The notes under the pieces were generated by a model. That model was not told where the DNA came from, did no database searches, and saw only the letters and a program-made list of their open reading frames with translations. Shown one piece after another: positions 15,962 to 38,934 of a DNA stretch of 42,519 nucleotides; within the stretch, counting starts at the first letter, position 1; every line of letters starts with the position of its first letter. This stretch comes from Thioploca sp. (lineage in GTDB: Bacteria; Pseudomonadota; Gammaproteobacteria; Beggiatoales; Beggiatoaceae). The translations under genes were made by a program, and so were the position numbers. The stretch is taken from positions 1 to 42,519 of the forward strand of contig DAOUSL010000009.1 of assembly GCA_030627235.1 (NCBI GenBank). Direction: 5' to 3'.

Positions 15962-17452
15962 TTACTTAGTAATAGATTTTTTCTCTTTTACTCTAGCTAA
16001 GGCTGCTTTAATCTTATCTTGTTTACTTTTATCAGCGGCAGCTTTTTTATGTTTAGCTTTACGTTCTTCTTTTTCTCGTTGTAATCTAAATGATCTGAAT
16101 TCATGTCTTTGTTTAGCTAATTCAGCTTTTTTCTGTTCATTTTCAGCTTTTCTAATTTCAGCTTTTGCATAGCGATAATAACTAACTAGTGGAATATGAC
16201 TTGGGCAGACATAAGAACAACAACCGCATTCAATACAATCAAATAATTTATAGTCATGGATTTTCTTCAAATCTTTAGCTTTGGCATACCAATATAATTG
16301 TTGTGGTAATAAATTAAGAGGACAAACGTCTGCACAAGCACCACATCGAATACAAGGCATCTGAGGAGGTTTATCTTTAAGGCGTTCTCCAACAGAAGCG
16401 ATTAAACAATTGGTGGTTTTAATTACTGGCATATCGTCATCTGGTTGAGAAAAACCCATCATTGCTCCACCAACGATTAATCGTTCTATCTCTGGTTTAC
16501 GACCACATTGATCAATCAGAAATCGCATTGGTGTCCCAAATGGTACTTCTAAATTTTGCGGATTTTCAACTGCTCCACCAGTTACGGTAATAATTCGTGA
16601 TATTAATGGCTGGCCTAATTGAACAGCTCTATAAGTAGCTCTGGCTGTTTCTACATTATGTACTACCATTCCATATTTTGCTGGTAGCTGTCCACGTTTG
16701 ATTTCAATCCCTGTAAGCACATTTACTAATTGTAATTCTCCACCAGTTGGATAAATAGTTTCTATCTTAATAATTTCTATTTCTGGGTCTGCTGCTTCTA
16801 ATAAGGCTGCATATGCTTCTGGTTTGTTGTCTTCTACCGCAATTATGCAACGTTCTGTGCCTCCCAAAGCATGTTTAATTATTTTAGCTCCAGCAATAAT
16901 ATCATGAGGTTTTTCTTGCATTAAACGGTCATCACAAGTGATATAAGGTTCACATTCAGAGCCATTAATAATCAGAGTATCTATTCCATCTGGCCTTAAT
17001 TTTATATGAGAAGGAAAACCAGCCCCACCTAAACCAACTACGCCTGCTCTGGCTATATAATCACGCACCATACTTGGGCTTAAAGTTGTATAATCATCCA
17101 AAGGAACTAATTTAGTCCAGGTATCTTTACCATCAGTTTCAATGATAATACAAGGAGCTGTTAGGCCAGACGGATGCGGTACAGCTCTCTCTTCAATGGC
17201 AATTACAGTACCTGAACTAGAAGCATGTAATGGAACAGTCATTAATTTACGACAATTATAAGCATGACAATGAGCGATAATCTGTCCTTTTAATACTTTA
17301 TCTCCAATATTTACCACAGGTTCTGTTGGTTCACCAATATGTTGTAATAATGGCAATATTAAAAAAGGTGGAATATTAGCTGGTACTATAGATTTATTAG
17401 TGGAAAGATTCTTATAACCGTTAGGATGAACTCCACCTGGAAATTCCCACAT
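15962..17452 (-). CDS. rsxC: Electron transport complex subunit RsxC (RnfC)
   Basis: RsxC is the peripheral NADH/flavin and iron-sulfur subunit of the Rsx/Rnf complex on the inner membrane. In E. coli the complex keeps SoxR reduced. The 496-residue protein has the typical N-terminus (FPGGVHP), the NADH/FMN-binding region with VVGLGGAGFPSHIKL and NGSECEPYITCDDRLM, and two [4Fe-4S] motifs (Cys367/370/373/377 and Cys406/409/412/416). A charged Lys/Ala/Glu-rich tail follows. The ATG overlaps the stop codon of the preceding zinc-ribbon gene (TAATG), indicating translational coupling. Unusually, it is separated from rsxB by three unrelated genes, and rsxD does not follow it. Confidence 0.95.
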   Translation of the reverse strand: MWEFPGGVHPNGYKNLSTNKSIVPANIPPFLILPLLQHIGEPTEPVVNIGDKVLKGQIIAHCHAYNCRKLMTVPLHASSSGTVIAIEERAVPHPSGLTAPCIIIETDGKDTWTKLVPLDDYTTLSPSMVRDYIARAGVVGLGGAGFPSHIKLRPDGIDTLIINGSECEPYITCDDRLMQEKPHDIIAGAKIIKHALGGTERCIIAVEDNKPEAYAALLEAADPEIEIIKIETIYPTGGELQLVNVLTGIEIKRGQLPAKYGMVVHNVETARATYRAVQLGQPLISRIITVTGGAVENPQNLEVPFGTPMRFLIDQCGRKPEIERLIVGGAMMGFSQPDDDMPVIKTTNCLIASVGERLKDKPPQMPCIRCGACADVCPLNLLPQQLYWYAKAKDLKKIHDYKLFDCIECGCCSYVCPSHIPLVSYYRYAKAEIRKAENEQKKAELAKQRHEFRSFRLQREKEERKAKHKKAAADKSKQDKIKAALARVKEKKSITK

Positions 17453-17880
17453 TATGTTGTTTGCTCCAATTTTTCTGTGTTTAGTAATTTTTTGAAAAAA
17501 GCTTCATTAGGGTGTGGTTTTATCATAGCCATTTCCTGCATATGTTGTTTTTGCTGAATCTTTGTATCATATATTTTATTTCTGCATCCACGACATCTAA
17601 CAGCACAGGAATAAAGATTTCCTTTAGCTACCTCATACCACCATTTTTGCTGTCTAGCTGTCCATATTTCTTCTAAACCACAATCACGGCATGTATATGA
17701 AATATTGATGTAATATTCAGGAAAACCATGATAAGTATGATTATGTTTAAGTTCTTCATGATTTGCCAATATGCTATCTTGAGGCAATATTTTGTGTACT
17801 GTTTTTACTTCCAGTAATTTTATAGCTTTCTTAAGTCGTTTATTTTTTATTTCTAATCGGCGTTGTTTATTACTTTTCAT
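17452..17880 (-). CDS. Zinc-ribbon domain protein upstream of rsxC
   Basis: The 142-residue protein begins with a basic region (KSNKQRRLEIKNKRLKKAIK) and has a central zinc-ribbon made of YTCRDCG and VRCRGCRNK, with a W-TARQQKWWYEVAKG segment between. This resembles the 'probable zinc-ribbon' family (zf-trcl type), whose role is unknown. Four cysteines in two CxxC pairs can bind one zinc ion. The basic N-terminus suggests nucleic-acid binding, an inference only. Its stop codon overlaps the rsxC start (TAATG), so the two are cotranslated. A 63-bp palindromic repeat lies just upstream (17937-17999). Confidence 0.75.
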   Translation of the reverse strand: MKSNKQRRLEIKNKRLKKAIKLLEVKTVHKILPQDSILANHEELKHNHTYHGFPEYYINISYTCRDCGLEEIWTARQQKWWYEVAKGNLYSCAVRCRGCRNKIYDTKIQQKQHMQEMAMIKPHPNEAFFKKLLNTEKLEQTT

Positions 17881-17936
17881 TTCTATGATAATTATTAAGT
17901 TTTATTAGAAGTATTTCCCCAAATAGGTATATAAAT

Positions 17937-17999
17937 GTAGGATGCAATGAACGAAGAGAATTGCATCAAGATGTAATTCGTAAACTCATTACATCCTAC
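17937..17999 (-). repeat. 63-bp cloverleaf-like palindromic repeat, copy B
   Basis: This is the inverted copy of the element at 13008-13070, with two differences in 63 bases. It lies in the 170-base gap between the methyltransferase gene and the zinc-ribbon gene, at one edge of the genes inserted in the rsx locus. Confidence 0.85.
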
Positions 18000-18050
18000 A
18001 TTATATTGCAATATTAATTTTGTTCTAGTCTCTTAGATTTTGGTAAGAGC

Positions 18051-18893
18051 TTAAATAGGTATCTCATAATTAGTAACAATTGCTTCAATCATTGGGCTAC
18101 GGTTTTTTTCACTAGCTCCAACATGATAAAAATGTTCACGAGTAAGTATATTAAATTCTTTCCAAATTGATTTTATATATTTATTTTCTCGATAATCATT
18201 GTGATGCCATGTAGATAAGATAAATTTGCTTTTTGTTGTAGAAAGTTCTTCATATAAATTTTGTTCATCATTTTCATCCCAACCATTATAATAATCAACA
18301 TTCCGGTCTATATATGGAGGATCACAATAAATTATGTCATTATCATTTCCAATTTTAATTGTATTTTCAAATGATTGACATTCAAACTTGAATGATTTTA
18401 GCTTTACTAGGTTTGTTATATGTTTTATTTGATTTACAATTTTTGTAATATATGCTGGTGCAAAACGTTGAGGTTTTCGGCAAAATGGAATATTAAAACC
18501 TCCTTTTTTATTAAAGCGAATCATGCCATTAAATCCAGCTCGATTTAAAAATAGAAAATCTAATGGTTGATGTTCTTCGTTAAAACGTTCTCGTATTTCA
18601 TAATAATGTATTTCTCCTTTTTCAAGTAGTTTACTTCCTTCAATTGTTAAGTAATGTCTGACAATTTCAGAAGTAATTTCACCAAAAGCTATTGCAGAAT
18701 AAAAATTGATTAAATGTGGGTTTGTATCACATAATAAAGCATTTTTAGGGGCGATATTGAAAGCAACAACTCCAGTTCCCATAAACGGTTCAATCCATAA
18801 ACCTTCAAAATTTGTAGGAACAATACTAGCAATCCATGGAACTAATTTGGTTTTAATCCCCTGTGATTTAATTGGAGGTACGTTTACTTTCAT
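18051..18893 (-). CDS. D12-class DNA adenine (N6) methyltransferase
   Basis: The 280-residue protein transfers a methyl group from S-adenosylmethionine to adenine in DNA. Motif X is [16 protein letters not shown] (6-21) and motif I is EPFMGTGVV (35-43). The Dam-family stretch [14 protein letters not shown] follows near 115-128, then KGGFNIPF and the catalytic motif IV DPPY (191-194). The conserved middle stretch is typical of Dam, DpnM and M.EcoRV relatives; the target site cannot be read from sequence. No restriction endonuclease is recognisable next to it. It lies between rsxB and rsxC with a DUF2310 gene upstream (63-base gap), which looks like an insertion into the rsx operon, perhaps by transfer. 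Confidence 0.9.
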
Positions 18894-18956
18894 GATTTAA
18901 TTGGCTAGGTAATAAGTGCTTTAAATACTGATTACTTTAACAAATAATAGATTTAG

Positions 18957-19793
18957 TTATTTTCCCATTTTACGTTTATTGTATTCCCCAATAACAGCAT
19001 GACGTTCATCATCATATGAATCAGCAAGATGTGAAACTAAACGACAATCTTCACATTTAAAAGGAAATTGATAAAAAGCAACATCTAGGTTTATTTTTTT
19101 AGATAAATTCCAAGATTTACCACAATCTGGACATTTTCTAAGTTCTTCTTTTTTACGACGACCCCAGTATCTCATAAGATAATAATAAGTTGGAATCCCT
19201 GTGATACATTCAATATTTTTACAAATTTCCCGTCCATCTTTTGATAATTGACTAAATGGACTGGCAAGTTGTTTATAAGCAGGAATCTCAAGTTCTCCAC
19301 ATCCAATCCAAATGGAATCAAAATTTTTATAATAGCCTTGCCAAGAAAAAATTTCTGCACGATTTTCATATTCACCTAGGAGCAAGTATATTGGTATTGG
19401 TTTACCATTATCTCCACGACATAATGCTGATTCATTATCATTCATATGCGTGAACAAATAAAGAAAAGGTGAATTTTTCCAAGTTATGTCTTTTTTTGGA
19501 GCATCGTCATCAATTAGATTCCATGTTGGATTCATCCCAAAATGTTCTTTAATATTCTTTAATCGTTCAATTCCATATTTACAGTGAAATATGGATAAAT
19601 TTGCTTGGATACCTTGCATATTTATATACGCACAAAGTTTTCCTTTTTGAACAACAATAAAATATTCACCATTAGCCTGACCATTGTGATACAGTGCTGA
19701 GATATAATTATGAATCAAATCTTCAGATTTATCACTATTATGTTTTTTAACATCACCAAATATAAGTTTGTATAGGATCATTTCTGTATCCAT
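18957..19793 (-). CDS. DUF2310 family zinc-ribbon protein
   Basis: The 278-residue protein matches, from memory, DUF2310 proteins of Vibrio and Legionella. Conserved segments are IFSWQGYYKNFDSIWIGCGE, SQLSKDGREICKNIE, TGIPTYYYLMRYWGR and a C-terminal zinc ribbon formed by Cys221/Cys224 (CPDCGKSW) and Cys247/Cys250 (CEDCRLVSHLA). The family is described only as possibly nucleic-acid binding; its function is unknown. It starts 17 bases after rsxB on the same strand and precedes the adenine methyltransferase gene. That place would suit a restriction partner, but no nuclease motif is visible and the DUF2310 match argues against it. Confidence 0.75.
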   Translation of the reverse strand: MDTEMILYKLIFGDVKKHNSDKSEDLIHNYISALYHNGQANGEYFIVVQKGKLCAYINMQGIQANLSIFHCKYGIERLKNIKEHFGMNPTWNLIDDDAPKKDITWKNSPFLYLFTHMNDNESALCRGDNGKPIPIYLLLGEYENRAEIFSWQGYYKNFDSIWIGCGELEIPAYKQLASPFSQLSKDGREICKNIECITGIPTYYYLMRYWGRRKKEELRKCPDCGKSWNLSKKINLDVAFYQFPFKCEDCRLVSHLADSYDDERHAVIGEYNKRKMGK

Positions 19794-19810
19794 TAATCTT
19801 CAGCCTATGG

Positions 19811-20392
19811 TTACTTTTCATCAAGTATTTTTTTATTTTGCAACTTTTCCACTTTAACTAACGGAATCACCGGATAAGGCCATTTCCAAGTAATAGTTGT
19901 CGGCGGCACTTCCACCATAGTAATACAATCAACTGGACAAGGTGCAATACATAGCTCACAGCCAGTACATTCTTGATCAATCACAGTGTGCATCTGTTTA
20001 GCAGTCCCCAAAATAGCATCCACTGGACAAGCTTTTATACATAAAGTACAACCAATACAAGCAGATTCATCTATTATTGCTAACTGTAAAGGAGGTTCTT
20101 GATATTCACCTTCCAATGGTTTAGGTTCACGATCCAATAAATTAGCAATCGCTAACATTCCAGCTTCACCACCAGGAGGACAACGATTAATTTCCTCATT
20201 TTCAGTTACAACAGCTTCAGCATAAGGTTTACAACCTGGATAACCACATTTGCCACATTGTTGCTGAGGAAGAATTTCATCAACTTTATCAACTACAGGA
20301 TCACCTTCAATTTTAAATTTTATCGCTGCATAGCCTAATAATAAACCAAATAAGACTGCTAATGTACCAAGAGTAACAATAGTGGTTATCAT
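19811..20392 (-). CDS. rsxB: Electron transport complex subunit RsxB (RnfB)
   Basis: RsxB carries electrons through the Rsx/Rnf complex from the membrane surface. The 193-residue protein has an N-terminal membrane helix (about 5-24), then a cluster with Cys46, Cys49, Cys54 and Cys71 ([11 protein letters not shown]...RCPPGG). Two ferredoxin [4Fe-4S] motifs follow: Cys112/115/118/122 and Cys142/145/148/152. Length and spacing match E. coli RsxB (192). Its start overlaps the rsxA stop by four bases (ATGA), so the two are translationally coupled. The next gene downstream is not rsxC but a DUF2310 gene. Confidence 0.96.
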
Positions 20393-20970
20393 AATTTTAC
20401 TAATCCTACAAATCCCATAAATGCTATCGACATAATACCAGCAGTAATTAAAGCTATTGGAGCTCCTTTAAACGGCAATGGAACATCGGCTTGATTAATC
20501 CGTTCTCGCATAGCAGCAAACAATACCATAACCAACGAAAATCCAACTGCTGCTCCAAAACCATAAGTAGCTGATTCTATGAAGCCATGTTTTTCCTGAA
20601 CATTTAGTAAAGCAACGCCTAATACGGCACAATTAGTAGTAATCAATGGTAAAAATATTCCTAAAATTTGATATAATAATGGACTGGTTTTATGTACCAC
20701 CATTTCAGTAAATTGGACTACGACTGCAATCACTAAGATAAATGCAATGGTACGCAAAAATTCTAGTTCTAATGGTATCAATAAATATTCATTGACTAGA
20801 TAACTAGTTACGGATGATAAAGTTAACACAAATGTAGTGGCTAACCCCATTCCGATAGCGGTTTCTAATTTAGAAGACACGCTCATAAAAGGACATAATC
20901 CTAAAAACTTAACTAATACAAAGTTATTTACTAGGACAGTACTGACAAATATTAGCAGGTATTCAGTCAT
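20389..20970 (-). CDS. rsxA: Electron transport complex subunit RsxA (RnfA)
   Basis: RsxA is an integral inner-membrane subunit of the Rsx/Rnf complex. The 193-residue protein has six predicted membrane helices. It has the two conserved cysteines thought to hold an iron-sulfur centre within the membrane with RsxE: Cys26 (LGLCPF) and Cys114 (TTNCAVLG). Length equals that of E. coli RsxA (193). It is the first gene of the rsx group. The partner genes rsxD, rsxG and rsxE, which normally follow rsxC, are not in the window. Confidence 0.96.
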
Positions 20971-21321
20971 ATTTTATTAATTTATAGGAAGTTGTGTTGA
21001 TAGTTTCATATTTAATAAGATTTATTTTTAGATAAAACACTAATATTTAGAATGATGTCAAATTATGAGTTTATCAACTATATATGTTAATAGTAAAAAA
21101 ATTAATCGTGGTGACTCTAATAATTTAGAAATTTTAGGATATATAGAATTAATGTGATTACTTACTACCACTTGATAAACTATATGAGGGAGGCGGTGGG
21201 ATGGAATCGCACAATTGGACTAGTTGATGGCAACTTAATAATTGTTTCACTAAGAATAGTTTATGGGCATCATGAAATCTTGGCAAAATTCCAGTATATT
21301 ACTTTGTATAACTTAAATTAA
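20971..21321. promoter_or_regulatory. Intergenic region upstream of rsxA
   Basis: These 351 bases lie between the 3' end of the lipoprotein gene and the rsxA start on the same strand, and should contain the rsx promoter. No convincing -35/-10 pair, RNA or repeat was recognised. Confidence 0.3.
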
Positions 21322-21807
21322 TTAACGAAATTTTATCATACAGTTCGTTACTCCACTGCATTCTACATGAATTTTATCTATGTTTAAGTTGACCCAATCT
21401 ATAATATCTTTGGGTAAATTAACGAATAAACTTTTCATAGAATCTAATGATTTTGATAGATTTTCAATTGCTTTTTTGATTGCTCCATCATCACATTTAC
21501 CTTCTTTTTCTATCCAATGGATAGTATTTCCGGTTAATACTATTGAACCTGAAACAATGGCGGAAACGGTTGCAATGACTACCACACCAGCAAGAATATA
21601 AAATAAGATTCCAAAATCATCGGAAATATCGAAACCTGTAAAATTAAGTGGTTTTTTTTTATTAGGTGGGAAAACTTCTAACGTCAGTTTTTTAGTAACT
21701 AAATTGCATTGCGTATTTTGTTTATCAGAAAATTTTGGATAAAAAGCACAACTTGATAAGTAAAATACGAGAGTTATAAATATAGTAGTTTTTTTAATGG
21801 TATTCAT
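21322..21807 (-). CDS. Small putative lipoprotein with a glycine/valine-rich membrane segment
   Basis: No family is recognised. The 161-residue protein has a lipoprotein signal (hydrophobic TIFITLVFYLSSC, lipobox LSSC, Cys20). A second hydrophobic segment near residues 68-92 (ILFYILAGVVVIATVSAIVS) is followed by a helical C-terminal half with four further cysteines or basic sites. A lipidated N-terminus plus an internal membrane helix is unusual, and the second segment may insert into a membrane or pack in an oligomer. It lies 169 bases downstream of the GHKL-nuclease gene on the same strand; whether they act together is unknown. Confidence 0.6.
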   Translation of the reverse strand: MNTIKKTTIFITLVFYLSSCAFYPKFSDKQNTQCNLVTKKLTLEVFPPNKKKPLNFTGFDISDDFGILFYILAGVVVIATVSAIVSGSIVLTGNTIHWIEKEGKCDDGAIKKAIENLSKSLDSMKSLFVNLPKDIIDWVNLNIDKIHVECSGVTNCMIKFR

Positions 21808-21976
21808 TGTAAAACAATAAGGTATTATTTGTAAATTATTTTTATTACTAGAGTTTCAAACGGGTAGTCAATGGAATATAGGGTTTTCATGTTTTAATAG
21901 ATTACATCTCGATTAGAAATGTATTGATGAAAAACAAATAACAGTTAATTAATGGATGATATGTACAATATATTTG

Positions 21977-23950
21977 CTACAATGTCTTAGTTTGCAGCTT
22001 TTCAACTATATCAGTTGTACTATCATTAGATAAATCATCAAGTTTAGAATTTAGCGTTTGTAATAAATAATCATTTGATAATTCAAACTCATCAAATATT
22101 GTGAACCAATCCTTGACGTAACATTTGATTTTATCGTTATAAGTTACTAATCCAAATTCTGATTTATCTTTTAGATTCTCAATTCTCTGTTTAATTTGAA
22201 CATCATCATTTGAAATTTTACGACCAACTAAGAGCAATTCAAACCGCATTTTATCACTTCCAAATGCTGGATGTTTAGATATTATTTCAGCATAATCATC
22301 AAGCTGACGAAGATGATTTTTATTTAATGAAATTCCAGGTCTTTTAATTTCAATTATTATACATTTGTAAATTTTATTGTTTTTAGAGTCAAAAGTAGGT
22401 AGTTTTCTAGCCAAAAATAAATCTACTTGTCTGTTAATTCCTTCAACACTAGCTCCTTCTGCAATATCTTCCTTTGTTATAATATCAATATCTTTAATTT
22501 CATTTCTTAAATTTTTCGCAATTTTATTAAACGTATCTTCTTCTGCACCTAAAGTAGTATATTGAGGACCAAAAAGCCAAGTATTATTCTCTATAATCTT
22601 TTGAAGATCAGGTGTTTCTGAAATTTTAGTAAATCTATTTACCATGACTTCTCGTAATTGATGTATAGCCATTTGACGTTTTTGAAGAGATTCAATAGTA
22701 CTGATTATATTCTCTAATGTTGTCTTTCTAAGATGTGAAGCAAATTTAGATAAATTATATTCACTCAAATCAAGAACACCACCTAATACTTCCAAAAGAG
22801 TATCATTTTCATTGGAAACCAATATCTTATCCAACAAATGAATTAATATTTTAGTTGGTTTAGAATTTAAGTTATTAAATATAGTTGGATCTGCAATGTA
22901 AATTTTTTTGAGTACTGATTTAGTATTTTGCTTTCTCCATTTTGCATAATCATGGTCAAAATTTAAGTAATTTGGAAAATAGTCCTTTTCATCATACTCT
23001 TCTATTTTTATATCCACATATTGTTTTAAATAATTTATATAAATATCTCTTTGAAGTAAAATTATTTTTTTAAAAACGTTCTCAATTGTTTGTGAATCTT
23101 CAATACTTTTTTGTTCAAATTCCAATGCTTCAGGATCATACTCATCAATCCATTCAGAAAATACATATGCACTAGTGAAAAAAATACTCTTATTATTAAA
23201 TGTACTTAATTCTTTTTTTATAATTTTATTATTACTATTTATCAAATAATTATACGATTTTTCTGAGCTAGGTTTATTTTTCCATAAAATAATTTTAGCA
23301 GTGAAAATATTTCCATTGATTTTAAACTTTTCTTCATAAAATTCATGTTCTGGAATCGGTATGGGTTTGTTATTTAATTTTACAACTCTATTATCATTCA
23401 GTGCTAAATACCAACCAAATTCCTTACTAAATTCTTCTATAAGTTCTTTTTCAATTGGTAGGTTATTATTTCTAAAATTAATTAATTCAACACAAGTTCC
23501 AGACTTTAATTTTTTAAGAAAATGGTGTTGCTTATCTTCATGAAGATAGTCACCAATATAATCTTTAATTGCATTACTTTCTATAGTTATTTTTGCATTA
23601 TATGTTTTTCTTTTGGTATACCAGATTGCTGTTTCACTTAATTTATGAAAGGACAATCTACCTTTTCCGTGAGAACCACGTTTATCATCATCATTTTTTT
23701 TCGAAGATTCATTAAATTTTTCGAAATTATTTTTAATATTTTTAACATCAATTCCTTCGCCATCATCAACAATAAACACACTATCTAAACCACTAAGATT
23801 ATTATGAGTTACCTTGATATTAACAATATTACAGTTAGCATCTAAACCGTTCCATATTAGTTCATAAATAGCATGTATTGGTTTGAAGTTTTTGAAATGT
23901 TTTTTAATTCCTTCGTCTGTAATCTTGGTAGAACCTTGAAATGATTCCAT
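21977..23950 (-). CDS. GHKL ATPase fused to a PD-(D/E)XK nuclease-like domain (candidate defence protein)
   Basis: The N-terminal third is a GHKL (Hsp90/MutL/histidine-kinase type) ATPase: N-box ELIWNGLDA (Glu30, Asn34, Asp37), G1 box DDGEG (62-66) and G2 box GSHGKG (92-97). A helical middle region (about 290-440) follows. The last 200 residues hold NNTWLFGPQY (Trp458), then QVDLFLAR (Asp510) and IIIEIKRPG (Glu534, Lys536). This Asp-X23-Glu-X-Lys pattern with the preceding 'W-LFG' helix resembles Shedu/DUF4263-type PD-(D/E)XK nucleases, several of which defend against phage. I infer an ATP-dependent clamp that gates a nuclease. It lies alone between nuoN and a lipoprotein gene, in an accessory-looking stretch. 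The ATPase call is strong and the nuclease call is good; the biological role is a hypothesis. Confidence 0.8.
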   Translation of the reverse strand: MESFQGSTKITDEGIKKHFKNFKPIHAIYELIWNGLDANCNIVNIKVTHNNLSGLDSVFIVDDGEGIDVKNIKNNFEKFNESSKKNDDDKRGSHGKGRLSFHKLSETAIWYTKRKTYNAKITIESNAIKDYIGDYLHEDKQHHFLKKLKSGTCVELINFRNNNLPIEKELIEEFSKEFGWYLALNDNRVVKLNNKPIPIPEHEFYEEKFKINGNIFTAKIILWKNKPSSEKSYNYLINSNNKIIKKELSTFNNKSIFFTSAYVFSEWIDEYDPEALEFEQKSIEDSQTIENVFKKIILLQRDIYINYLKQYVDIKIEEYDEKDYFPNYLNFDHDYAKWRKQNTKSVLKKIYIADPTIFNNLNSKPTKILIHLLDKILVSNENDTLLEVLGGVLDLSEYNLSKFASHLRKTTLENIISTIESLQKRQMAIHQLREVMVNRFTKISETPDLQKIIENNTWLFGPQYTTLGAEEDTFNKIAKNLRNEIKDIDIITKEDIAEGASVEGINRQVDLFLARKLPTFDSKNNKIYKCIIIEIKRPGISLNKNHLRQLDDYAEIISKHPAFGSDKMRFELLLVGRKISNDDVQIKQRIENLKDKSEFGLVTYNDKIKCYVKDWFTIFDEFELSNDYLLQTLNSKLDDLSNDSTTDIVEKLQTKTL

Positions 23951-23986
23951 AGTTTTATTTTGTACTTAAGTTCATTTATTAAAATT

Positions 23987-24013
23987 GGTGGGCAAGATAA
24001 ACCTTTACCCACC
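23987..24013. terminator. Weak hairpin after nuoN
   Basis: ggtggg (23987-23992) pairs with cccacc (24008-24013), with extra partial pairing inside, in the 72-base gap after the nuoN stop codon. It may be a terminator or a dispersed palindrome. Confidence 0.35.
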
Positions 24014-24022
24014 CTACTATAT

Positions 24023-25660
24023 TTAAATTCCCCAAGCTCCAAGGCATATAACCATCAATGTATTTGGCATCAAACCCAGCAACAATATGGTTAACGCATT
24101 GGCACTAAGAGCCACTCTTATATCAGTGCTAGCTTCAATCGGAGTTAAATCTACAGGTTTATCGAAATACATAAACTTAATAATGCGTAAGTAATAAAAC
24201 GCTCCAATAACCGCAAATAACACTGCTAAAACAGCCAACCAAATAAAGCCTGCATTGATAACTTGTGCTAATACTGCCCATTTAGCCCAAAAACCTATCA
24301 TTGGTGGTATTCCAGCCATTGATAACATTATGATTAACATTATAGCTGCATACCAAGGATTTCTTTCATTCAATCCTTTGAAATCTATAATATTTTCTGC
24401 TTCAAATCCAGTTCTACTTAGCAATATGATCATACCAAAAGCTCCTAATGTCATAATGGAATAAACCACTACATAAAACATAGAAGCCGCATAACCATCT
24501 GCATTAGCTGCAATTATTCCTAATAGTAAATAACCAACATGAGCAATGGTAGAATATGCCAACATACGTTTAATATTTTGTTGAGCAATTGCTATCACAT
24601 TACCAACTATTATTGATAAAATTGATAGCAAAATTAGCATTCCCTGCCAATCAGTATGTAAAGTTTGCATACCATCGACCAATAATCGCATCAGCATTGC
24701 AAATGCAGCAATTTTTGGAGCGCTGGCAATAAATAATGTCATTGAAGTTTGTGAACCTTGATAAACATCAGGTATCCACGAGTGAAATGGAACTGCCCCT
24801 AGTTTAAAACCTACTCCAATCACAATAAAAACTAATCCAAATACTAAAATAATATAGTTTTGTGAACCCGTCTTTAACATAGGCTGGATAATAATCATGG
24901 CTTCAGTTTCTATGTTAGCATCTATAGTTTCTGCAATTTTAGTTGCAATTGGACTATTGGTTATTCCAGCCACATGTTTTTCAACATTTTTTATTGCTAA
25001 CTCAATATCTTCAGTTTCACCGATTAACTGATTTACCGCTGTTATAGTAGTACGGTCATTAGCAATTTCAGTTATATTTTGCGATAATTTAGTTATATCT
25101 AAAGTAGTTGTAATACCATATAACATTGACATTCCGTACAACAACATTCCTGATGCCAATGCTCCCAATACAAAGTATTTCATCGCTGCTTCAGAGGCAA
25201 CTTTGGATTCACGATTCATGGCAATCATGGTATATAAAGATAAAGATAATAACTCTAAACCTAAGAAAATCATCAATAAATTATGGGCTGATACCATAAT
25301 TAACATGCCTAAAGTGGCAAATAAGCCTAATACAAAATATTCGCCCTTAAACATTTTACGATCTTGTAAATATTCACGAGAGTAAATAAAGGTAAAAAAT
25401 ACTATTAATACAATGAATAATTTCAATATGGTACTCATTGCATCAATAATAACCATGTCATTCATTGCTAATATTGGTTGGCTGGTAGAAGTAGCAATAA
25501 TCAATAAAGCCGCTCCTAGTAAAGTACCTTGGGTTAAGTGATAAGTTAAATTACGCAATTGTTTAGGCAAGTAAGCATCAATTATTAAAATAACACAAGC
25601 CATTGTTAATAATAATATTTCTGGTAGCAACCACGCTATATTTAAATCTGCAATTGTCAT
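24023..25660 (-). CDS. nuoN: NADH-quinone oxidoreductase subunit N, with a loop insertion
   Basis: NuoN is one of the antiporter-like, proton-pumping membrane subunits of respiratory complex I. The protein has the typical series of membrane helices, including LEQ-type motifs such as LLMIFLGLELLSLSLY, the ion-path segment GFKLGAVPFHSWIPDVYQG and GIPPMIGFWAKW. It is 545 residues, against about 485 in E. coli. The extra length lies mainly between about residues 195 and 268, a polar Thr/Glu/Ile-rich segment between helices. nuoN normally ends the nuo operon after nuoM, but no nuoM lies upstream here. The gene is divergent from rph across 212 bases. Confidence 0.94.
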   Translation of the reverse strand: MTIADLNIAWLLPEILLLTMACVILIIDAYLPKQLRNLTYHLTQGTLLGAALLIIATSTSQPILAMNDMVIIDAMSTILKLFIVLIVFFTFIYSREYLQDRKMFKGEYFVLGLFATLGMLIMVSAHNLLMIFLGLELLSLSLYTMIAMNRESKVASEAAMKYFVLGALASGMLLYGMSMLYGITTTLDITKLSQNITEIANDRTTITAVNQLIGETEDIELAIKNVEKHVAGITNSPIATKIAETIDANIETEAMIIIQPMLKTGSQNYIILVFGLVFIVIGVGFKLGAVPFHSWIPDVYQGSQTSMTLFIASAPKIAAFAMLMRLLVDGMQTLHTDWQGMLILLSILSIIVGNVIAIAQQNIKRMLAYSTIAHVGYLLLGIIAANADGYAASMFYVVVYSIMTLGAFGMIILLSRTGFEAENIIDFKGLNERNPWYAAIMLIIMLSMAGIPPMIGFWAKWAVLAQVINAGFIWLAVLAVLFAVIGAFYYLRIIKFMYFDKPVDLTPIEASTDIRVALSANALTILLLGLMPNTLMVICLGAWGI

Positions 25661-37626: not shown

Positions 37627-38934
37627 ATGAAAACTATATTTCGTTACTTACCAACTTTATTAATGGGAGTAATTTTAGGGTCTTTTATTGCGGTTGGAAC
37701 TACTGTATTTGCCAATCGTAGCCAAGTTAATTCATCTATACCATATGAAGACTTGCGTACTTTTACCGAAATTTTCGACAAAATTAAAACTGATTATGTT
37801 GAAGAAGTTAATGATAAGGATTTATTGGAAAGTGCTATTCAAGGAATGTTAGCTGGGCTTGATCCTCATTCTGGTTACTTAGACCAAGAAACTTTTCGAG
37901 AGTTACAAATTGGTACTACTGGTGAATTTGGTGGTTTAGGCATTGAAGTTGGAATGGATAATGGTTTTGTTAAAGTTATTGCCCCAATTGACGATACGCC
38001 GGCTAAACGGGCTGGAATTCAGGCTGGAGATTTAATTGTACGTCTGAATGATACTCCAGTAAAAGGAATGTCCTTAAGTGATGCTGTTAAGATCATGCGT
38101 GGTGAACCAAATACTGATATTGATTTAACTATTGTACGTGAAACTGAAGATAAGCCAATAGTTATAACTGTAACTAGAGCTATTATTAAAGTAAAAAGTG
38201 TTAAAAGCCGTACTTTAGAACCAGGTTATATTTATGTTCGTATTAGTCATTTCCAAACTCCAACTGGTAATAATTTAGAACAAGCTATTATAGATCTAAA
38301 AAAAGAAAATAAAGCAGTTGGTTTAAAAGGATTAGTATTAGATTTACGCAATAATCCAGGTGGAGTATTAAAAGCAGCAGTATCAGTATCTGATGCCTTT
38401 TTAAAAAGTGGGCTTATTGTTTATACAGAAGGAAGAGTACCTGATTCTTCACTTAGATTCAATGCTCATCCAAAAGATTTAGTGGATGGAGTTCCAATGG
38501 TAGTATTAGTTAACAGTGGTTCTGCTTCTGCATCAGAAATTGTCGCTGGAGCTTTACAAGATCATCGACGAGCAGTAATTATGGGTACAAAAACCTTTGG
38601 CAAGGGTTCAGTCCAAACTATTTTACCTATGAATAATGATTCTGCTTTAAAGTTAACAACTGCAAGATATTTCACTCCATTAGGTCGTTCCATCCAAGCG
38701 GAAGGTATTCAACCTGATATTATATTAAGTAAAGTTGAAATCGCTTCAGTGGAAAAAGAATCAGATCGAATTACGGAAGCTGATTTAAATCGACATTTAG
38801 ATAATGGTAATAAAAAATCTAAATCTACCGATACTTCCACTATAGAATCTGAAGAAGAACCATTAGTAAAGAGAGATTATGAACTTTATGAAGCTCTTAA
38901 CTTATTAAAAGGATTAAATATAATCCAAAATTAA
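37627..38934 (+). CDS. ctpA: C-terminal processing peptidase (S41 family) CtpA/Prc-like
   Basis: This periplasmic serine protease cleaves proteins from the C-terminus, in many bacteria limiting murein hydrolases. The 435-residue protein has an N-terminal membrane anchor or signal (about 7-29) and a PDZ domain (about 90-175, with GLGIEVGMDNGFVKVI and PAKRAGIQAGDLIVRLND). The S41 domain carries the Ser/Lys dyad: by spacing to E. coli Prc (25 residues) these are Ser301 in NSGSASASE and Lys326 in FGKGSVQT. A polar C-terminal tail follows. A strong terminator lies at 38947-38975. The neighbour EnvC also acts in wall turnover. Confidence 0.94.
   Translation: MKTIFRYLPTLLMGVILGSFIAVGTTVFANRSQVNSSIPYEDLRTFTEIFDKIKTDYVEEVNDKDLLESAIQGMLAGLDPHSGYLDQETFRELQIGTTGEFGGLGIEVGMDNGFVKVIAPIDDTPAKRAGIQAGDLIVRLNDTPVKGMSLSDAVKIMRGEPNTDIDLTIVRETEDKPIVITVTRAIIKVKSVKSRTLEPGYIYVRISHFQTPTGNNLEQAIIDLKKENKAVGLKGLVLDLRNNPGGVLKAAVSVSDAFLKSGLIVYTEGRVPDSSLRFNAHPKDLVDGVPMVVLVNSGSASASEIVAGALQDHRRAVIMGTKTFGKGSVQTILPMNNDSALKLTTARYFTPLGRSIQAEGIQPDIILSKVEIASVEKESDRITEADLNRHLDNGNKKSKSTDTSTIESEEEPLVKRDYELYEALNLLKGLNIIQN

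What the first reader, a model, noticed from the sequence alone, without database searches (positions are those of the whole stretch)
21977..23950. Single-gene GHKL ATPase-PD-(D/E)XK nuclease fusion: candidate undescribed anti-phage system
The gene joins a full Bergerat-fold ATPase (N-box Glu30/Asn34/Asp37, DDGEG, GSHGKG) to a C-terminal domain with Asp510, Glu534 and Lys536 in PD-(D/E)XK order, after a W-LFG helix seen in Shedu-like nucleases. GHKL clamps that open and close with ATP are known to load or gate DNA enzymes (MutL, topoisomerases), so an ATP-gated nuclease defence protein is plausible. The gene sits alone among housekeeping genes.
Basis: partly seen in the sequence, partly recalled or inferred. 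Interest (0 to 1): 0.72.

Follow-up and report, generated by a model that had tools for sequence, protein, structure and literature searches.

The report
ATPase-nuclease anti-phage gene, known kind
This single gene fuses a MORC/MutL-like ATP-driven clamp to a Shedu-type DNA-cutting domain; it is a real and probably working phage-defence gene, but this kind was predicted in 2008 and shown to stop phages in 2025, so it is a new member rather than a new system.

Summary
Window 21977-23950 (-) encodes an intact 657-aa protein with a GHKL ATPase site, a MORC-like ATPase module and a C-terminal PD-(D/E)XK domain; key residues are invariant or nearly so in 45 aligned sequences. The nuclease domain looks Shedu-type: profile-profile E 1.9e-6 against 13 Shedu proteins, and E. 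coli SduA heads a structural re-ranking. "Undescribed" is wrong. The architecture was predicted as "paraMORC3" in 2008 (PMC2292703), and a protein of this architecture, VcSduA, was shown to block phages in 2025, needing both ATPase Glu and nuclease Lys (PMC12137116). Here the gene is accessory: 1 of 42 family genomes has a close homologue, its own. In 20 of 22 clade-mate viral contigs a CI/LexA-like repressor gene lies upstream. A clade-mate is in 18 of 5426 E. coli genomes; 5 of 5 inspected copies lie between psu and int of a P4-like satellite, a published anti-phage hotspot. Most likely it is a single-protein, ATP-gated nuclease acting against phage or other incoming DNA; defence by this protein is inferred, not tested. 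New member of a known kind; the prophage placement is the interesting part.

The parts
21977..23950 (-). GHKL ATPase - Shedu-type PD-(D/E)XK nuclease fusion, 657 aa (paraMORC3 / type I-D Shedu architecture)
   Evidence: ORF; PHROG_6203 over residues 7-636 at E 4.4e-82; full-length homologues
23561..23875 (-). GHKL (Bergerat) ATPase domain, Pfam match residues 26-130: E30/N34/D37, DDGEG 62-66, GSHGKG 92-97
   Evidence: HATPase_c_3 E 4.8e-18; residues conserved in 45 sequences; Foldseek top hits MORC3/MORC2/MORC4 ATPase structures, E about 5e-11; residues 80-90 and 92-94 have low model confidence
22709..23560 (-). middle region, about residues 131-414: S5-like alpha/beta part then long helices (the clamp-like region in the VcSduA model of PMC12137116)
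   Evidence: Secondary structure of the AF2 model; MORC/Hsp90/GyrB/MutL structures align over about 350-460 columns; residues 380-395 and 399-413 have low confidence. S5 identity inferred
21980..22708 (-). Shedu-type PD-(D/E)XK nuclease domain, residues 415-657: E445, NTWLFG 456-461, D510, E534, K536, Q549
   Evidence: AF2 model pLDDT 84.9, pTM 0.81; VIA-align Z 10.4 to E. coli SduA 8ps4; hhalign to 13 Shedu proteins prob 89.7, E 1.9e-6

Best explanation
A single-gene defence nuclease of the GHKL-Shedu kind. Inferred mechanism: the protein dimerises through its GHKL-S5 module, as MORC and MutL do, and ATP binding closes a clamp around DNA. Clamp closure or ATP turnover positions or licenses the C-terminal Shedu PD-(D/E)XK domain (metal site D510/E534/K536) to cut phage or other incoming DNA directly, without partner genes. 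Shown by others for a protein of the same architecture (VcSduA): phage restriction that needs both the ATPase Glu and the nuclease Lys and that preserves host viability. Inferred: clamp gating, the target DNA, the trigger, and that this copy defends its host.
For: Intact ORF. ATPase match and MORC-like fold. Catalytic residues invariant or nearly so in 45 sequences; 15 of 15 key residues checked are also kept in the E. coli P4 copy (46% identical) and a Deinococcus plasmid copy (28%). Shedu identity: PADLOC SduA E 6.6e-4 on residues 413-465; hhalign prob 89.7, E 1.9e-6 for the domain, and prob 94.2, E 1.1e-7 for the full-length profile, aligning only 415-544; VIA-align ranks 8ps4, 8ps5 and 8ti9 first at Z 10.4, 10.1, 9.6. 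1 of 42 family genomes holds a close homologue, the window's own, and 9 of 369 class genomes hold the architecture. Mobile and defence contexts: 20 of 22 clade-A viral loci with a CI-like repressor gene within 815 bp upstream (Pfam-confirmed in 9 of 10 upstream genes scanned); 5 of 5 inspected E. coli copies between psu and int of a P4-like satellite, the hotspot of PMC9122126; two plasmid relatives beside a type ISP R-M gene and an Abi gene. VcSduA phenotype.
Against: I found no phage test of this protein or of a clade-A member in the papers listed. Foldseek gave no hit at E <= 1e-3 for the nuclease domain, its best were other restriction enzymes (MspJI 0.011), and no Shedu entry was in the 50 rows shown; the Z margin over N.BspD6I (9.0) and EndoMS (8.9) is small. 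Among PADLOC profiles, two of 12 relatives match a type II restriction-enzyme profile better (best 9e-8) than any matches SduA (best 1.6e-4, 5 of 12). No DUF4263-named Pfam family was listed for any of the 12 at E <= 1. The hhalign E-values are for single comparisons and no unrelated nuclease family was run as a control. Six chromosomal clade-A loci showed no defence island (by eye, no family scan). Clades A and B are only about 20% identical, and VcSduA could not be placed in either.
Confidence: 0.8

Rival explanations
1. A DNA-repair enzyme of the host, a MutL-like ATPase carrying its own nuclease, recruited to mismatch or recombination repair.
For: Iyer et al. 2008 proposed this for paraMORCs in non-R-M contexts. 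MutL is among the nearest ATPases by sequence. The window context is housekeeping.
Against: No close homologue in 41 of 42 family genomes, the 4 congeners (63, 84, 87 and 99% complete) included; relatives in viral contigs, a P4-like satellite and plasmids; NCBIfam MutL models score far below cut-off; a protein of the same architecture defends against phage.
Confidence: 0.08
2. A component of an R-M system, working with the D12-type adenine methyltransferase 3 kb downstream (18051-18893).
For: A DNA methyltransferase gene lies nearby; paraMORCs commonly occur with R-M genes; a plasmid relative overlaps a type ISP R-M gene by 4 bp; some relatives' nuclease domains match type II restriction-enzyme profiles.
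Against: RnfA, RnfB, a DUF2310 gene and the 161-aa ORF lie between. Among the loci held the methyltransferase had one match, in a viral contig (L052). Standalone paraMORC3 genes lacked conserved neighbours in the 2008 survey.
Confidence: 0.05
3. A gene resident in this chromosome that no longer defends, a decayed or repurposed relic of a prophage gene.
For: No phage genes were recognised beside it in the window; promoter-like sites are no more frequent than in shuffles (23 against a mean of 24.9); one prophage-like copy, L072, is broken.
Against: Intact frame and catalytic residues kept; 72 bp downstream of nuoN on the same strand with no terminator-like site found in 20900-24200, so read-through is possible.
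Confidence: 0.05

Closest known systems
VcSduA, Vibrio cholerae VC_00276, type I-D Shedu (Adams et al. 2025, PMC12137116; search passages and section 12 seen)
   Same: N-terminal GHKL ATPase, middle clamp, C-terminal PD-(D/E)XK Shedu domain in one protein; single-gene system; catalytic Glu (E27; here E30) and Lys (K557; here K536)
   Different: Glu-to-Lys spacing is 530 residues in VcSduA and 506 here (500-519 in the relatives in which both could be read). Anti-phage activity is shown for VcSduA only.
paraMORC3 family (Iyer et al. 2008, PMC2292703; parts 1-3 of 4 seen)
   Same: GHKL + S5 + C-terminal RE-fold domain with E-D-ExK; a subset standalone, mainly in proteobacteria and bacteroidetes; no MORC-specific motif
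   Different: The 2008 paper likened the nuclease domain to RecB-family nucleases. The 2025 paper, and most tests here, place it with Shedu.
Canonical Shedu / SduA (PDB 8ps4, 8ps5, 8ti8, 8ti9)
   Same: Same nuclease-domain profile and motif order: E...Q, N-x-W-x-[LF]-G, D, E-x-K, Q
   Different: The 13 Shedu proteins aligned here are shorter (318-512 aa) and align to the window's family only over the nuclease domain; their N-termini were not scanned. Plasmid relatives of the window gene, where annotated, are called 'ATP-binding protein' or 'hypothetical protein', not Shedu.
MORC ATPases (MORC2, MORC3, MORC4)
   Same: Nearest solved structures to the N-terminal part (Foldseek E about 5e-11)
   Different: The MORC S5 motif is absent in 45 of 45; a nuclease domain stands where eukaryotic MORCs carry chromatin-reader domains (named in PMC2292703).

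Membership tests
Shedu (SduA) | PD-(D/E)XK nuclease domain with D, E-x-K and Q in order | tested here: met
   Invariant in 45 sequences; AF2 model aligns to PD-(D/E)XK nucleases
Shedu (SduA) | Sequence homology to the Shedu nuclease domain | tested here: met
   hhalign A4 vs 13 Shedu proteins prob 89.7, E 1.9e-6, with D, ExK and Q aligned; A5 itself matches PDB Shedu chains at E 1.2e-51 and 7e-22. No unrelated nuclease family run as control
Shedu (SduA) | Nearest solved fold is Shedu | tested here: inconclusive
   Top three in VIA-align (Z 10.4, 10.1, 9.6), but next rows 9.0 and 8.9, and no Shedu in the 50 Foldseek rows shown
Shedu (SduA) | Hit by curated Shedu profiles | tested here: inconclusive
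   PADLOC SduA E 6.6e-4 for the window, 5 of 12 at E <= 1, while 2 of 12 match a REase_II profile at up to 9e-8; no DUF4263-named Pfam family listed at E <= 1
Type I-D Shedu with GHKL domain (VcSduA kind) | N-terminal GHKL ATPase motifs I-IV in the same protein | tested here: met
   HATPase_c_3 E 4.8e-18; motif residues conserved
Type I-D Shedu with GHKL domain (VcSduA kind) | Anti-phage activity that needs ATPase Glu and nuclease Lys | not testable with these tools
   Bench test; shown for VcSduA
Type I-D Shedu with GHKL domain (VcSduA kind) | Direct sequence homology to VcSduA | not testable with these tools
   I found no way to fetch VcSduA's sequence by name with the tools at hand
paraMORC3 | GHKL + S5 + C-terminal RE fold with E-D-ExK | tested here: met
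   (E445, D510, E534, K536 invariant); the S5 part rests on fold similarity to MORC and other GHKL proteins, and that E445 is the paper's E is inferred
paraMORC3 | Lacks the MORC motif GhXhhpXXRhl | tested here: met
   0 of 45 sequences hold it
MORC | GhXhhpXXRhl motif in the S5 domain | tested here: not met
MutL | NCBIfam MutL equivalog score above cut-off | tested here: not met
   26.4 bits against a cut-off of 756; 25.9 against 180

The most novel reading that the evidence does not exclude
The window gene's clade (clade A) is a separate lineage of GHKL-Shedu nucleases, largely phage- and satellite-borne in the sample seen, that serves as a superinfection-exclusion module. In prophages it is expressed with the immunity repressor (a Rex-like position), in P4-like satellites it occupies the psu-int defence slot, and in some chromosomes, as here, it is a solo gene. 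If so, lysogens use an ATP-gated clamp nuclease, distinct in sequence from the clade-B proteins, to destroy competing phages.
Probability: 0.42. Interest if true: 0.5.

Novelty: new member of a known kind. Interest (0 to 1): 0.34.

Why it matters
It joins two literatures, MORC/MutL-type ATPase clamps and Shedu nucleases, and gives a well-conserved set of natural variants for testing how ATP gates a defence nuclease. Clade A links the architecture to lysogeny: a CI-like repressor gene upstream in 20 of 22 viral loci, and a known satellite defence slot in 5 of 5 E. coli copies inspected. Plasmid and E. coli copies are annotated no further than ATP-binding or hypothetical protein, and the window's relatives match PADLOC's Shedu profile weakly, so such genes are probably under-counted.

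Tried and rejected
Chance motif or misread frame: rejected. Pfam PYRIN and HSDR_N_2, PADLOC TmtA: weak matches to the window protein, not used, though HSDR_N_2 matches 12 of 12 sequences weakly (best 8.2e-4), as a PD-(D/E)XK fold would. NCBIfam's sacsin-type ATPase model matches at E 9.3e-7 but below its cut-off (29.2 against 50 bits). Clean empty-site test: failed, because gene order round nuoN and rnfA differs between congeners. Composition as proof of transfer: the gene has the lowest G+C of 30 ORFs compared (25.9%; the other 29 range 27.8-37.8%), but its third-position G+C (15.7%) is ordinary, so this is weak. Boundary repeats: only A+T-rich chance-like repeats. Neighbour 21322-21807 as a partner: no Pfam or PADLOC match and no match in the other loci held. 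Profile search of the C-terminal domain against PDB sequences: none at E <= 10. Search of viral contigs with the window protein alone: no relative among 8 candidate stretches; with the alignment A1: 59 loci. Canonical Shedu found by PADLOC profile in 1 of 229 class genomes (a fragment, not used) and 1 of 398 phylum genomes (used as seed). Direct comparison with VcSduA: not possible. Its E27 is a position seen in several clade-B proteins and earlier than any clade-A value read (30 or more), a hint that VcSduA is not clade A, not a test.

Counting notes. One search covers 24 loci, L052-L075, on clade A's side; L066 (no upstream DNA) and L075 (714 bases upstream, outside clade A in the tree) are left out of the 22. 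The two misses are L052 (none found) and L059 (1.6 kb away). Of the 20, 11 lie within 62 bp and 9 at 155-815 bp, some with small ORFs between. The profile was built from nine of the counted repressors, which is circular for those; several contigs are near-identical; and the profile would miss repressors of other kinds, so the clade-B figure (4 of 35 within 2.5 kb, three on the same strand) is not a fair contrast. Alignments A3 and A4 hold 45 sequences: the window, 4 genome loci and 40 of the 59 viral loci; 19 near-duplicates and broken or short frames were dropped by eye. The tree holds 43 rows picked by hand. A5 took 12 of the 28 plasmid records plus the seed.

Full report
WHAT IS THERE. Window 21977-23950 (-) encodes a 657-aa protein, the only such protein in its 4.58-Mb, 471-contig genome. 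The N-terminal part is a GHKL ATPase (HATPase_c_3, E 4.8e-18, residues 26-130). Two alignments were made: 12 sequences from genomes, window included (A1), and 45 sequences, the window with 4 genome and 40 viral-contig relatives (A3). In A3 the ATPase residues N34, D37, D62, G64, G66, G92, G95 and G97 and the nuclease residues E445, D510, E534, K536 and Q549 are invariant, and E30 is at least 90% conserved. The E. coli P4-satellite copy (46% identical) and a Deinococcus plasmid copy (28%) keep 15 of 15 key residues checked.

FOLD. The full-length AlphaFold2 model has mean pLDDT 80.6 and pTM 0.53, with low confidence at 80-94 and 380-413. Its best Foldseek matches in the PDB are MORC3, MORC2 and MORC4 ATPase structures (E about 5e-11); Hsp90, GyrB and MutL structures come among and after them. 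The C-terminal part (residues 415-657) modelled alone has pLDDT 84.9 and pTM 0.81. Foldseek gave it no match at E <= 1e-3; the best was the restriction enzyme MspJI at 0.011, and no Shedu entry was in the 50 rows shown. VIA-align, re-aligning Foldseek's top 1000, ranks E. coli SduA first (8ps4 Z 10.4, 167 aligned, rmsd 4.4; 8ps5 Z 10.1) and B. cereus Shedu third (8ti9 Z 9.6), before N.BspD6I (9.0) and EndoMS (8.9). All these are PD-(D/E)XK nucleases (recalled for the last two), so the fold class is well supported; that Shedu is the nearest fold has a narrow margin.

SHEDU BY SEQUENCE. PADLOC's SduA profile touches residues 413-465 at E 6.6e-4; 5 of 12 genome sequences match it (best 1.6e-4), while 2 of 12 match a type II restriction-enzyme profile better (best 9e-8). 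As a stronger test I took 12 of 28 plasmid proteins found with a PADLOC-found seed (L133), 11 of them annotated as Shedu and one hypothetical (Calothrix), and aligned them with the seed (A5). A5 matches the PDB Shedu chains at E 1.2e-51 and 7e-22. hhalign of the window's C-terminal family (A4) against A5 gives probability 89.7 and E 1.9e-6, with the D, the E-x-K and the Q of both families in register. The full-length clade-A profile (A2) gives 94.2 and E 1.1e-7 and aligns only residues 415-544. These are single comparisons; no unrelated nuclease family was run as a control. The shared order E...Q, N-x-W-x-[LF]-G, D, E-I-K-R-P, Q is visible by eye.

RELATIVES AND CLADES. A maximum-likelihood tree of 43 hand-picked proteins has a fully supported split. 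Clade A (19 rows, support 100/100) holds the window, G060, Shewanella, a gammaproteobacterial MAG, Electrothrix (Thermodesulfobacteriota), Micavibrio (Bdellovibrionota by the tree's label), L029, the E. coli P4 copy and viral-contig genes. Clade B holds 22 rows. A Deinococcus plasmid protein and viral L075 join clade A's side on long branches. The two clades are about 20% identical. Such a phylum-mixing tree points to transfer.

THE GENE IS ACCESSORY. In the class sample 9 of 369 genomes hold the architecture at E <= 1e-20. By the tree, with G240 taken as the record behind L003 from its equal contig length, 4 are clade A and 5 clade B. In the family 4 of 42 genomes match at E <= 1e-3: the window's own, one clade-B gene (G284) and two ATPase-part matches (G398, G402, not followed), so only the window's genome has a close homologue. 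The 4 congeners (63, 84, 87 and 99% complete) have none. Alignment to congeners ends at 23949-24025 on the nuoN side and at 20974-21082 on the rnfA side. Gene order differs there, so no clean empty site can be shown.

MOBILE AND DEFENCE CONTEXT. Of 22 clade-A viral loci with at least 1 kb upstream, 20 have a CI/LexA-like repressor gene within 815 bp upstream on the same strand, 11 of them within 62 bp. L059 has one 1.6 kb away and L052 none found (the profile was built from nine of these). Of 10 upstream genes scanned with Pfam, 9 have Peptidase_S24, 8 of these with a helix-turn-helix; the tenth (L059) is an endonuclease I gene. This resembles the place of the lambda rex genes (recalled). In E. 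coli one clade-A gene is present in 18 of 5426 genomes at 99% identity or more. In 5 of 5 inspected it lies between psu (polarity suppression protein) and the integrase of a P4-like satellite at tRNA-Sec, the locus that Rousset et al. 2022 described as an anti-phage hotspot (PMC9122126; passages and section 8 seen; its main text does not name GHKL, HATPase or Shedu). The 18 copies are nearly identical, so they are not independent events. Among plasmid relatives that were not put in the tree (23-24% identical to the window protein), one overlaps a type ISP restriction-modification gene by 4 bp (Phaeobacter) and one lies beside an abortive-infection gene and near toxin-antitoxin genes (Bradyrhizobium). 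The Salmonella plasmid copy (clade B) lies among siderophore and adhesin genes, and the Deinococcus copy has a DNA methyltransferase gene 1.5 kb away. Two Pasteurella phage records carry a relative. Against this, six chromosomal clade-A loci showed no evident defence island (by eye, without a family scan; L029 looks like a prophage, and L005 has recombinase- and reverse-transcriptase-like neighbours).

WHAT IS KNOWN. Iyer et al. 2008 (PMC2292703; parts 1-3 of 4 seen) described paraMORC3: GHKL + S5 + C-terminal RE-fold domain with E-D-ExK, a subset standalone in proteobacteria and bacteroidetes, perhaps with functions outside R-M. Adams et al. 2025 (PMC12137116; search passages and section 12) showed that VcSduA, a GHKL-Shedu protein, protects E. 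coli against T1-like phages, that E27A and K557A abolish this, and that growth data fit direct restriction rather than cell suicide; they report homologues in about 1.2% of genomes (543 hits), note that such proteins were annotated as paraMORC3 and class them as type I-D Shedu. Gu et al. 2025 was not held. One other held paper names both Shedu and GHKL, on gyrase (listing only). The finding is therefore not an undescribed system.

MECHANISM. The best reading is an ATP-gated dimeric clamp nuclease that acts alone on phage or other foreign DNA. Conservation, fold class and context are shown here; the phenotype of the kind is shown by others; clamp gating, the DNA target and the trigger are inferred. 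The gene lies 72 bp downstream of nuoN on the same strand, with no terminator-like site found in 20900-24200, so it may be read from that transcript.

VERDICT. Real, functional-looking, already-known kind. The value added is its placement in a distinct clade tied to prophage immunity regions and a P4-like satellite, which makes a specific superinfection-exclusion hypothesis testable.

Noticed in passing
window 15962-20970: The rnf operon is split: rnfA-rnfB and rnfC are separated by a zf_Tbcl protein, a D12-type DNA methyltransferase and a DUF2310 protein, whereas in several other genera of the family rnfC follows rnfB directly. Congeners G378 and G379 carry other genes after rnfB.
   Followed up: partly
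window 38344-38656 (-): Rfam Rp_sR47 (Rickettsia sRNA47) match above gathering score, antisense inside a peptidase S41 gene (37627-38934 +); probably the family reflects conserved coding sequence.
   Followed up: no
window 21322-21807 (-): 161-aa ORF with a lipoprotein-like N-terminus (by eye) and no Pfam match, directly downstream of the gene, with no match in the other loci held.
   Followed up: partly
L111 and L112 (E. coli P4-like satellite at tRNA-Sec): In these two strains the neighbouring yicI gene is interrupted by an insertion that carries ISEcp1 and a CTX-M-14 beta-lactamase gene; described only.
   Followed up: no
L049, L050, L051, L035, L036, L037 (congeners): The genes beside nuoN or rnfA differ from the window's in the congener stretches read, suggesting a much rearranged gene order in this genus.
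   Followed up: no
L072 5906-7908: A clade-A viral-contig copy broken into two frames (217 and 412 aa), so the gene can decay.
   Followed up: no
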